NCBI GenBank assembly: GCA_020850695.1
Contig: JADZEF010000198.1
Span: forward strand, 1-49,037
Origin: Planctomycetaceae bacterium
GTDB lineage: Bacteria > Planctomycetota > Planctomycetia > Planctomycetales > Planctomycetaceae
DNA: 49,037 nt
Direction: 5' to 3'
Shown here: piece by piece, positions 18,094 to 45,274 of the stretch
Position numbering within the stretch: position 1 is the stretch's first letter
Layout: each line of letters opens with the position of its first letter
Notes under the pieces: generated by a model
Told to the model about the DNA's origin: nothing
The model's input: the letters and a program-made list of their open reading frames with translations, nothing else
Databases searched by the model: none
Position numbers and translations under genes: made by a program

Positions 18094-18115
18094 CCACCAA
18101 TTGAAGGATGCACCC
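18094..18115 (-). repeat. Dispersed GGGTGCATCCTT-type repeat, copy C
   Basis: The minus strand reads GGGTGCATCCTTCAATTGG, inverted relative to copies A and B, so B and C bracket a 445-base interval. Confidence 0.65.
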
Positions 18116-18250
18116 GGTTGGGTCAAGGCTTCATTGACGCTCGATGATGCATCGCTCCACAATGGAATGCTGGGCAGAGACGCGGCGGATCGGTAAGCCG
18201 TCCGTCGCTCGATTTTGCGCCTGTGAGTTTCACACCTGGGGAGAGACTGA

Positions 18251-27374: not shown

Positions 27375-27662
27375 ATGCCCGGCCGCAAGGTCAGCCTGAT
27401 TCTGACAGTTGTCGTCGCGGTGGCCGCGTTGATGGTGGCGTACATCGGCGCGTACTACGGGATGGTGAATTCGATTCTGTGGGATGTTGATGCTCCCCGC
27501 TCCGAGTTTTACTGGATTGGGGAGCCAACGATGGACGACCTCGATTCCCCAACGCAGGATTGCCTGCGTTCTTTGTTTCGTCCGATGAACTGGCTCGATC
27601 GCCGCGCCCGGCCTCGTACCTGGGATCCGATCCGCACGGAGGAATTCGCTCCCGCCGGCTAA
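27375..27662 (+). CDS. Small single-TM protein, paralog 1 of a three-member family
   Basis: 95 residues, ATG 27375 with GAGGAG ten bases upstream. The start M-P-G-R-K leads into one TM segment (about 7-30, L-I-L-T-V-V-V-A-V-A-A-L-M-V-A-Y). A variable middle follows, then the C-terminal box F-R-P-M-N-W-L-D-R-R-A-R-P-R-T-W-D-P (about 69-86). The same box recurs in the genes at 32897 and 44361, so the three are paralogs. The basic N-terminus favours N-in topology, with the box outside the membrane; this is inference. A hairpin at about 27314-27341 precedes the gene, and the shared 3' element follows at 27678. Function unknown. Confidence 0.8.
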   Translation: MPGRKVSLILTVVVAVAALMVAYIGAYYGMVNSILWDVDAPRSEFYWIGEPTMDDLDSPTQDCLRSLFRPMNWLDRRARPRTWDPIRTEEFAPAG

Positions 27663-27677
27663 TGCTACCCCGTGCGG

Positions 27678-27698
27678 GTTTCAGGGGATGCGATTCAC
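27678..27698 (+). repeat. 3' element following small-TM paralog 1
   Basis: GTTTCAGGGGATGCGATT lies 16 bases after the stop of the 95-residue gene, on its coding strand. Closely similar sequence follows the other two family units at 32508-32545 and 44313-44350. Confidence 0.6.
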
Positions 27699-27730
27699 GG
27701 ATTCGGAGACTACTTCATTGAGGTCGGGTT

Positions 27731-32427: not shown

Positions 32428-32507
32428 GAGTGACTAGGCCGGATCGAGTCCAGTCATTCTTCCGAATCGACTGTCCATCGATCGGGGCGGCCGGGTAGTG
32501 TCCTAAT

Positions 32508-32545
32508 TTGAAAATCGCAGCCCCTGAAACTGGCATGGGGGATGC
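32508..32545 (-). repeat. 3' element following the paralog-2 cluster
   Basis: The minus strand reads GTTTCAGGGGCTGCGATTTT a few bases beyond the stop of the last gene of the cluster (32553). It matches the elements at 27678 and 44313, and the preceding CCCC-rich stretch is shared best with copy 3. Confidence 0.65.
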
Positions 32546-32552
32546 TGGCGGG

Positions 32553-32900
32553 TCAGTCCAGACTATGCGTTCGGTCGGCCGGCACTTCGGCGGCGGCTTT
32601 CCGGAAGACCTCCGCCTGAATCGCGATCAGTTCGCGGATCACGGCGTCGTCGCTAAAGCCCCGTGCTCGCATCTGACCTAGAACATCACTCGGGAGAAGC
32701 TCCCACCCACGCAATGCCGCCGCCTTCGCTCGCGCATCGACAGAAACATCCAGTCCGCCGAGTGCGCAACCACACTCCAATCCCGCCAAAAAGCTCTGTA
32801 CGGTTTCAACTGAAACCGGCTGAACGTACATAGGCGTGCGAGCTGCAAAAGAGTCAAGCAACTCGAATACGTCAAATGGCGGGCTGTGCTTGCGGCTCAC
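32553..32900 (-). CDS. Hypothetical small acidic protein, third gene of an overlapping cluster
   Basis: 115 residues with no signal or TM segment. The start M-S-R-K-H-S-P-P-F-D-V-F-E-L-L overlaps the stop of the preceding gene by ATGA, so it is translationally coupled to the small membrane protein. Segments D-V-S-V-D-A-R-A-K-A-A-A-L-R-G-W-E-L and I-R-E-L-I-A-I-Q-A-E-V look helical. I recognise no family. The shared 3' element follows at 32508. The other two family loci have no counterpart of this gene. Confidence 0.75.
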   Translation of the reverse strand: MSRKHSPPFDVFELLDSFAARTPMYVQPVSVETVQSFLAGLECGCALGGLDVSVDARAKAAALRGWELLPSDVLGQMRARGFSDDAVIRELIAIQAEVFRKAAAEVPADRTHSLD

Positions 32901-33175
32901 GGCTTCGGCTCCCAGACGCTCCGACGGATGCGGCGGTCGATCATGTTCATCGGAACGAACACACGGCGAATCGTCCTCGTCCAGACGCCGAGCCCGGCGG
33001 TGCTTTCGATCGCCTGCATCCTCGACATTCCATAGATGGCGAAAACCTTCCCTGAGGATCGCGGATCGGGGAGAGGATAAACAGTCGCATAGTACACCTC
33101 GACATACCCGCCGAGCAGCACCGCCAGCACAACGACGCCGATCCAGGGGAACGAACGGGGCTTGCGGTCAGCCAT
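32897..33175 (-). CDS. Small single-TM protein, paralog 2 of a three-member family
   Basis: 92 residues from ATG 33173-33175. The start M-A-D-R-K-P-R-S-F-P-W leads into a TM segment (about 12-29, G-V-V-V-L-A-V-L-L-G-G-Y). The C-terminal box is F-V-P-M-N-M-I-D-R-R-I-R-R-S-V-W-E-P (about 72-89). The N-terminal part is closest to paralog 3 (R-K-P-x-S-x-P-W-x-G-V-V-V). It sits between two other small genes with overlaps at both ends (8 bases and 4 bases), so the three are one coupled operon. Function unknown. Confidence 0.82.
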   Translation of the reverse strand: MADRKPRSFPWIGVVVLAVLLGGYVEVYYATVYPLPDPRSSGKVFAIYGMSRMQAIESTAGLGVWTRTIRRVFVPMNMIDRRIRRSVWEPKP

Positions 33176-33302
33176 TTGGGTTTTTCTTCGTGAGCAGCTT
33201 CTTGAACAGTACGACGATCGCCACAACGCCGCAGATCATCGTGAAGAAGATTCCGCAGAAGATCCCGCAAAGAATGAAGAGTTCAATCGTGCGGGCGGGC
33301 AT
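33168..33302 (-). CDS. Very small single-TM protein (44 residues)
   Basis: 44 residues from ATG 33300-33302, with GAGG upstream. The start M-P-A-R-T-I-E-L-F is followed by a long hydrophobic helix (I-L-C-G-I-F-C-G-I-F-F-T-M-I-C-G-V-V-A-I-V-V) and a basic end (F-K-K-L-L-T-K-K-N). The bases around the start (CCCCATGCCCGCCCGCA) are the same as at paralog 3 (44696), suggesting shared ancestry of the start region. Its stop overlaps the next gene's start by eight bases. The basic C-terminus predicts N-out, C-in topology. Confidence 0.7.
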   Translation of the reverse strand: MPARTIELFILCGIFCGIFFTMICGVVAIVVLFKKLLTKKNPNG

Positions 33303-33324
33303 GGGGTGAACCTCGGTGCATGAA

Positions 33325-33351
33325 AAGGCCCCGCTATTGTAGCGGGGCCTT
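33325..33351 (-). terminator. Hairpin between the FecR-like gene and the small-protein cluster
   Basis: A perfect 11-bp stem (33325-33335 with 33341-33351) and a 5-base loop, followed on the minus strand by CTTTTC. It lies 320 bases after the FecR-like gene and 23 bases before the start of the small cluster. It could be that gene's terminator or a 5' regulatory hairpin of the cluster. Confidence 0.65.
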
Positions 33352-33402
33352 TCGCTTTCACTCCGGGAATTCTTCGGATGCTGCGTCGTCGTCGCGGCCA
33401 GC

Positions 33403-33647
33403 GATGCATCCTTCATTTGGTGGGGGCACTTCTGCACCCTCTCCACCCTTTGGGGGAAGAAGGAAGGGTGAGGGGGCGAACGCTCCAACGATGTTCAAAT
33501 CCCCGTCAGCCTGCCCTCTCCCACAGCGACGGACATCGCGGCCCCCTTCCAATCCTCGGTGTTTCGCCGCGGAAGAGGGGACGGTGAGCGTGCGGCGGAG
33601 CGACTTGAGCGTGCGCTCGTCTCCCTGCCAAATGAAGGATGCACCCC
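33403..33647. repeat. Interval bounded by inverted GCATCCTTCATTTGG repeats (copies D and E)
   Basis: Copy D (33403-33420) reads GATGCATCCTTCATTTGG. Copy E (33628-33647) is its complement, reading GGGGTGCATCCTTCATTTGG on the minus strand. They are about 208 bases apart, with no coding frame between, giving a MITE-like outline. The same motif occurs at 17.3, 17.7 and 18.1 kb. Confidence 0.65.
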
Positions 33648-44116: not shown

Positions 44117-44305
44117 ACAAATTTGACTCATCAAGCCGTTGAAGAGGCTCCGGCTTGGACGAGATGGCCGCAAGTAGGAGCAAAAGTCGCAAAAGAGAAC
44201 GGGAGCATGAAATCCACTGGACACCGTTTGACCGGAGATGCTTTTGCGTCTTTTGTGCCTCTTTGCGGCAACATCGTCCACTCGATGGGGATGAGTCAAA
44301 TATGT
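44117..44305. repeat. Nested imperfect palindrome of about 190 bases
   Basis: The outer arms are ACAAATTTGACTCATC (44117-44132) and its near-complement (44290-44305). The inner arms are 44167-44195 and 44241-44269, which match in about 25 of 29 positions and carry a GCCGCAA...AAAAG-type CGCAAAAG sequence. The whole could fold into a long hairpin. The inner sequence resembles the CGCAAAG-type intergenic repeats found in many bacterial genomes. Confidence 0.75.
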
Positions 44306-44312
44306 AGCCGCC

Positions 44313-44350
44313 TTGAAAATCGCACCCTCTGAAATCGGAGTGCGGGGCGC
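44313..44350 (-). repeat. 3' element following small-TM paralog 3
   Basis: The minus strand reads GATTTCAGAGGGTGCGATTT ten or so bases after the stop of the 111-residue gene. It is the third copy of the element seen at 27678 and 32508. Confidence 0.65.
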
Positions 44351-44360
44351 TCACCGGAGG

Positions 44361-44696
44361 CTACTCACTCGGCTCCCAGGAGAGGCCACGTGGAAGTCCC
44401 ACTCCGCGAAAGGTTTCCCACTCCTGCTTTGTGGGCTTGGGTCCCCACGTGTGCGGCCGGATGCGTCGATCGAGCCAGTGAAGGGGGGCGAACACTCGCT
44501 TCGCAACACCTCCTTCATCCTCATCAGACGAAAGGTAGCGGGGAGCGGTGACGAGCAGCGACGCGCCGATCAGATTCTGGAACTTCCTCGTTTTCGGCGT
44601 GACCATCGCAAAGTACGAGCCGACGTACCCGCCGATCAGCGCCAGCAGCACGACGACGCCATTCCAGGGAATCGAGTTGGGTTTGCGGGCGGGCAT
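44361..44696 (-). CDS. Small single-TM protein, paralog 3 of a three-member family
   Basis: 111 residues from ATG 44694-44696, preceded by AGAGAGGTG. M-P-A-R-K-P-N-S-I-P-W-N leads to a TM segment (about 13-30, G-V-V-V-L-L-A-L-I-G-G-Y). A variable middle (about 35-68) precedes the box F-A-P-L-H-W-L-D-R-R-I-R-P-H-T-W-G-P (about 69-86). A further 25 residues (Q-E-W-E-T-F-R-G-V) are unique to this copy. The frame is open upstream to 44789, but the Shine-Dalgarno and paralogs support the chosen start. The gene is isolated between the nested palindromes at 44.1 and 44.8 kb. Confidence 0.82.
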   Translation of the reverse strand: MPARKPNSIPWNGVVVLLALIGGYVGSYFAMVTPKTRKFQNLIGASLLVTAPRYLSSDEDEGGVAKRVFAPLHWLDRRIRPHTWGPKPTKQEWETFRGVGLPRGLSWEPSE

Positions 44697-44812
44697 GGGG
44701 ACACCTCTCTCGAAATGACCGGCCGCGATTGTGGGACACTTCTGCAAAGCGAGCGTTTGACGGCCATTTGTCGTCAGTTGGTCGAGCAAGTCGTCCTGGC
44801 AGGTTCTTCGTC

Positions 44813-45035
44813 TTTACGCCAACGGCGTTGTACGCAGTAGCCCAGGGTCGCCAGTGGAAAACGATGCGTACCCCAACGGGGTTCTACAATGCGTGCGGGT
44901 GGGCGGAATACTCCACTTCTTGGACGCAGATCGTAGTACCCCCGTTGGGGTACAGGAGAAATGGTTCTTTAACCCAGGGTGCGCTCACAAAGCCTCGCGA
45001 CCCTGGGCTACTGCGTGCAACGCCTTCGGCGTAAA
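44813..45035. repeat. Nested inverted-repeat element of 223 bases
   Basis: The outer arms (44813-44851 and 44997-45035) are inverted copies matching at about 36 of 39 positions; each contains GCAGTAGCCCAGGGTCGC on one strand. Inner arms at 44868-44887 and 44933-44953 share GTACCCCAACGGGG. A third hairpin forms between CCCAGGGTGCGC (44973 onward) and the right outer arm. No credible coding frame is present. It lies upstream of hisD. Confidence 0.82.
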
Positions 45036-45274
45036 GCGCAGCCATTCATAGCCGCGCCTCGCAATCATGGCTGGTGATTTAGAAGTCTATCTGACCGTGC
45101 CGGGAAACTGGCGGGTGCGTTGCTGCTTTCCTGTTCCGAACCGTTCCCGCCGAGCCGAGATCGCGGAAAAGCAAATACTCCCGGAACGCAGATCGCGGCC
45201 TGCGCGTGGCGACTGATGCCGGCGACTCTTACAATCGGAGCTTTCCGCTCACGAAGATTCCGCAGACGCCCTTC

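What the first reader, a model, noticed from the sequence alone, without database searches (positions are those of the whole stretch)
32553..33302. Three-gene overlapping cluster of very small proteins
A 44-residue TM peptide, a 92-residue TM protein (family paralog 2) and a 115-residue soluble protein overlap by 8 and 4 bases on the minus strand, with a perfect hairpin 23 bases upstream and the shared 3' element downstream. Tight overlap implies coupled synthesis at fixed ratios. The first gene's start region (CCCCATGCCCGCCCGCA) equals that of paralog 3, which hints at a duplicated start or leader. The size and layout resemble small membrane toxin or stress modules, but no such family is recognised.
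Basis: partly seen in the sequence, partly recalled or inferred. Interest (0 to 1): 0.6.

Follow-up and report, generated by a model that had tools for sequence, protein, structure and literature searches.

The report
Three-gene member of scattered small-gene cassettes
The three tiny overlapping genes are real and form one copy of a set of two to three dozen short gene units scattered through this planctomycete-like bacterial genome; the units share start and end sequences but carry different small, mostly membrane-bound proteins, a cassette-like arrangement I could not match to any described system.

Summary
Observation confirmed: 44-, 92- and 115-codon ORFs on the minus strand, overlapping by 8 and 4 nt, with a perfect hairpin upstream and a repeated 3' element downstream. 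The toxin reading is not supported. The 92-residue protein belongs to an unnamed single-TM family with about 30 matches in this genome and 1-4 in each of 17 of the 169 other genomes of its family. The 115-residue protein is a patchy planctomycete family of unknown function. The 44-residue peptide has no convincing homologue, but has a Shine-Dalgarno-like sequence, good codon statistics and a start region shared with the family. Outside the given coordinates: the 3' element recurs about 25 times, in this genome only, usually 0-12 nt after a stop codon. Thirteen units also share a hairpin/-10-like leader in front of mutually unrelated small genes. The window unit joins a leader, three coupled genes and the 3' element. 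Two of its genes begin with start-codon segments found on other members, as if new bodies had been joined to shared starts. Some units touch defence-type genes; one sits in a prophage. Best reading: dispersed, moron-like accessory cassettes with exchangeable cargo. No recombinase, target duplication, integron signature or function was shown.

The parts
33323..33352 (-). perfect hairpin AAAGGCCCCGCT-acaat-AGCGGGGCCTTT plus T; part of the unit's leader, terminator-like; a -10-like TACAAT lies across the loop
   Evidence: 74 nt covering hairpin, leader and start are 92% identical to C162:2536-2609 of the same genome
33290..33314 (-). Shine-Dalgarno, start codon and first codons (CGAGGTTCACCCC ATG CCCGCCCGCA), shared with starts of other family members
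   Evidence: 96% over 24-25 nt to C415, C26 and C305; 17 nt exact at window 44684-44700
33168..33302 (-). 44-aa single-TM peptide MPARTIELF..., body without convincing homologue
32897..33175 (-). 92-aa member of an expanded bitopic membrane protein family (MxxRKP, TM GGYVGAYYATV, variable middle, FxPxHWLDRRIRPxxW)
32553..32900 (-). 115-aa soluble, predicted all-helical protein; GTG start overlaps the stop before it; patchy planctomycete family from about residue 10 on
32494..32545 (-). 3' element GCATCCCCC...GATTTTCAAATTAGGACACTACC, shared by about 25 units of the genome
44361..44696 (-). related unit: family member (111 aa) with the same start region, followed by a divergent 3' element at about 44296-44354
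27375..27662 (+). related unit: family member (95 aa), followed by a divergent 3' element at about 27659-27717

Best explanation
The cluster is one three-gene copy of a set of short, dispersed, cassette-like accessory units. Shown: units share a leader (terminator-like hairpin, -10-like box, Shine-Dalgarno, sometimes the first four to six codons) and/or a 3' element, while the genes between are unrelated small proteins, mostly single-TM. Inferred: the hairpins insulate each unit as its own transcription unit (moron-like), the three genes are translated in a coupled way, and cargo is swapped by recombination at the shared ends and shared start codons. On this reading the 44-aa peptide is a new body on a family start, and the 115-aa gene is a soluble protein joined to a start of the kind used by a second small TM gene. 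Guess: the products are membrane-associated accessory proteins for conflict with phages or other mobile elements.
For: 3' element: 25 matches in this genome, only one or two weak ones in any of 21 others of 169; 23 pattern matches against 1 for the backward control; it usually lies 0-12 nt after a stop codon. Thirteen units of 203-581 bp carry both leader and element; cargo proteins show no match to each other at E<0.1. Neither end in about 200 kb of contigs taken only by number. Window and C162 leaders 92% identical over 74 nt with different genes behind. Reduced units with 16-17 codons between the same ends at C305 and C162. GTGAGCCGCAAGC start of the 115-aa gene is also that of a TM remnant at C176, in the same stop-overlapping position; homologues of the 115-aa protein begin about 10 residues later. 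Units lie between housekeeping genes; one is in a prophage; three touch defence-type genes.
Against: No recombinase, excision product, empty site or target duplication seen; the recombinase search over the whole genome was not made. Window and leader-B units share only parts of the ends. Many family members have no recognisable 3' element. Most neighbours are ordinary genes, so the defence link may be chance. Everything rests on one genome (a draft in 440 contigs).
Confidence: 0.6

Rival explanations
1. Ordinary lineage-specific gene-family expansion: the 92-aa family was duplicated many times with its flanks, and unrelated small ORFs later arose or were captured beside some copies. There is no cassette system.
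For: About 30 copies in this genome, dN/dS 0.40-0.75 between pairs, patchy single copies elsewhere. About half the units with the 3' element carry a family member or its remnant.
Against: About a dozen units carry no family member, only unrelated genes between the same ends; simple duplication would not replace the coding part and keep both ends.
Confidence: 0.25
2. Non-autonomous transposable elements with passenger genes, for example moved by a single-strand (HUH, IS200/IS605-like) transposase: hairpins near both ends, no inverted terminal repeats, no target duplication.
For: Hairpin in the leader and a weaker one in the 3' element; sharp right end ...CATCACTACC; no duplication of target; dispersed copies.
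Against: No transposase seen near the units except an IS1-like ORF beside two of them, whose family uses other ends; the 3' hairpin is weakly conserved; no constant sequence was established outside the ends.
Confidence: 0.12
3. A small membrane toxin or stress module.
For: Single-TM peptide of 44 aa; several other units carry 32-48-aa TM peptides.
Against: No known family. The peptide differs in every unit. Homologues of the 115-aa protein mostly stand alone.
Confidence: 0.06

Closest known systems
Prophage morons (accessory loci)
   Same: Small accessory genes as separate units, with promoter-like and terminator-like signals of their own; one unit (C234) lies inside a prophage
   Different: Dispersed through a chromosome, not confined to phages; conserved leader and 3' end with changing cargo
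Integron gene cassettes
   Same: Diverse small cargo genes, each followed closely by a conserved element; known in planctomycetes
   Different: No array, a conserved leader before the gene as well, and no GTTRRRY/RYYYAAC core at the element's right end
Non-autonomous IS200/IS605-like elements
   Same: Hairpins near both ends, no inverted terminal repeats, no target duplication
   Different: Protein-coding cargo that changes from copy to copy; no transposase and no constant target found

Membership tests
Integron gene cassette | attC site with R'/R'' core sites (GTTRRRY / RYYYAAC) after the gene | tested here: not met
   Right end reads TTTTCAAAAGGCATCACTACC in most copies, without GTTRRRY on either strand (inspection); no covariance model of attC was run
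Integron gene cassette | integron integrase in the genome and cassettes in an array | not tested
   Units are dispersed; the genome was not searched for intI
Prophage moron | lies within a phage or prophage | tested here: not met
   Window unit lies between ordinary chromosomal genes; only C234 was seen in a prophage
Prophage moron | own promoter and terminator | tested here: inconclusive
   Hairpin strong; promoter and terminator scan found neither in consensus form; no transcript data
Transposable element with passenger genes | target site duplication or terminal inverted repeats | tested here: not met
   Shared flank words no longer than in swapped pairs; ends not complementary by inspection
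Transposable element with passenger genes | a transposase acting on these ends | not tested
   The genome search was exhausted; only an IS1-like ORF was seen near two units
Toxin-antitoxin module | toxic peptide with a cognate antitoxin or antisense RNA | not testable with these tools
   No family match; needs expression experiments

The most novel reading that the evidence does not exclude
A so far undescribed class of mobile or exchangeable single-operon cassettes in a planctomycete-like bacterium, defined by a terminator-promoter leader and a 3' end element, that spreads small membrane and accessory or defence genes and builds new genes by joining bodies to shared start codons.
Probability: 0.3. 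Interest if true: 0.8.

Novelty: new variant of a known kind. Interest (0 to 1): 0.58.

Why it matters
If the units are exchangeable, they offer a compact, recognisable tag (leader plus 3' element) for finding accessory and possibly defence genes in this lineage, and a natural case in which new small membrane proteins arise by joining to existing start signals. It may also help to explain why many small ORFs in such genomes have no relatives.

Tried and rejected
Pfam, NCBIfam, PADLOC and PHROGs for the three proteins: no family. PDB by sequence for the 115-aa family: only a designed chain and a weak hit, not meaningful. AF2 of the 115-aa protein: all-helical, pLDDT 64, no significant fold match; AF2 of the 92-aa protein: TM helix well predicted, rest poor. 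Rfam in the window: only a tRNA. Genome-contig scan with a family consensus: nothing. Viral contigs: no relatives of the 115-aa protein, no 3' end; the one leader match lies within a glycine-rich frame, without the rest of the leader or a 3' element, and was judged chance. Plasmids: no match to the 115-aa protein. Target duplication test negative. Not done: whole-genome search for a recombinase, comparison with same-genus genomes (none seen), search for the second small TM family.

Full report
OBSERVATION. The three ORFs, both overlaps, the hairpin, the repeated 17-nt start and the shared 3' element are all present. In-frame codon scores are positive for all three genes and lower in both shifted frames. 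The score of the 44-codon frame is matched by only 1 of 604 spurious ORFs of that size. It also has a GAGGT Shine-Dalgarno-like sequence shortly before its ATG.

PROTEINS. The 92-aa protein belongs to a family with no entry in the libraries searched. A profile of 16 copies finds 30 matches in this genome and 1-4 in each of 17 of the 169 other genomes of the family. Its ends are conserved (mean pairwise identity 0.44 and 0.52) and its middle is not (0.14); dN/dS between pairs is 0.40-0.75. The 115-aa protein has homologues in other planctomycete families, 46-48% identical in MAGs named Planctomycetales and Planctomycetota. These start at about residue 10 of the window protein and mostly stand alone. 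The 44-aa peptide has no convincing homologue.

UNITS. The sequence after the window cluster also follows many other small genes. Model R1 finds 25 copies in this genome; other genomes of the family show at most two weak matches each. A 19-nt pattern finds 23 copies against 1 for the backward control. Reading upstream of these copies gave genes of other kinds: TM peptides of 32-44 aa, longer TM proteins, and soluble proteins of 72, 121 and 129 aa. Thirteen units of 203-581 bp share a leader too: hairpin CCCCGCC...GGCGGGG with a T-rich tail, GGTAGAAT and, in many, GGAGG before the ATG. The cargo proteins do not match each other. In about 200 kb of contigs taken only by number, neither end was found.

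THE WINDOW UNIT. Its hairpin and leader are 92% identical over 74 nt to the leader at C162, which precedes a 55-aa TM gene, a 17-codon remnant of the 92-aa family and the 3' element. A C305 unit is reduced to start region, 16 codons and 3' element. C152 resembles the window in order: leader, small TM gene overlapping a family gene, 3' element. The 115-aa gene starts GTGAGCCGCAAGC, as does a TM remnant at C176 that overlaps its family gene in the same GTGA way. I infer that bodies have been exchanged at shared starts. This rests on sequence identity, not on observed events.

CONTEXT. Genes directly upstream of family genes or remnants include AbiU/AIPR at C305 (PADLOC 2e-26, Pfam 6e-26), an AAA_14/DUF4143 ATPase (PDC-S01) at C289, and an OLD/AriA-like ATPase at C438 with a TIR-domain gene nearby. 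The ATPase families are broad, so this is weak evidence of defence. C234 lies within a prophage. Most family members lie between ordinary genes. A tRNA-like element occurs upstream of four units, two of them in front of the defence-type genes. The held sequence was chosen to include unit contigs, so these links are suggestive only. Neighbour genes were called with a codon score made here, not with a gene finder.

MECHANISM. Shown: shared ends, unrelated cargo, placement. Inferred: insulated transcription, coupled translation, cargo exchange. Not shown: mobility, regulation, protein function. The target-duplication test was negative, and inspection showed no integron core site at the right end. 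Functionally the units resemble phage morons (accessory loci, PMC7067206), but the window unit is not in a phage, so membership is not claimed. Integrons are known from planctomycetes (PMC2426708, PMC8352920), but the units are not in an array.

VERDICT. A real feature, larger than the finding: a new variant of accessory gene cassette, with function unknown and mobility unproven.

Noticed in passing
window 33405-33643: A stretch of about 240 bp with inverted ends (37 nt, 76% complementary, inner part CCAAATGAAGGATGCA) between the 774-aa gene and the hairpin; a related end lies at 18097-18124. Possibly a miniature transposable element.
   Followed up: no
own genome C305:9951, C289:773, C142:5628(-), C162:1065: A tRNA-like element (class II-like, weak tRNA-Sec match in two that were tested, not called by ARAGORN) on the opposite strand, upstream of four units; ribbon-helix-helix-like small genes precede two of them.
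   Followed up: partly
own genome C162:91-933 and C305:8735-9577: Nearly identical IS1-like transposase ORFs beside two units.
   Followed up: partly
own genome C415:535-1600: Three units packed head to head and tail to tail, with only about ten bases between two facing 3' elements.
   Followed up: partly
window 44812-45036: 43-nt inverted repeat arms, 91% complementary, 139 nt apart.
   Followed up: no
own genome C234:14100-25000: Prophage genes (terminase, major head protein, head-tail adaptor) with a 38-aa TM peptide unit beside them and a SIR2-like frame downstream.
   Followed up: partly
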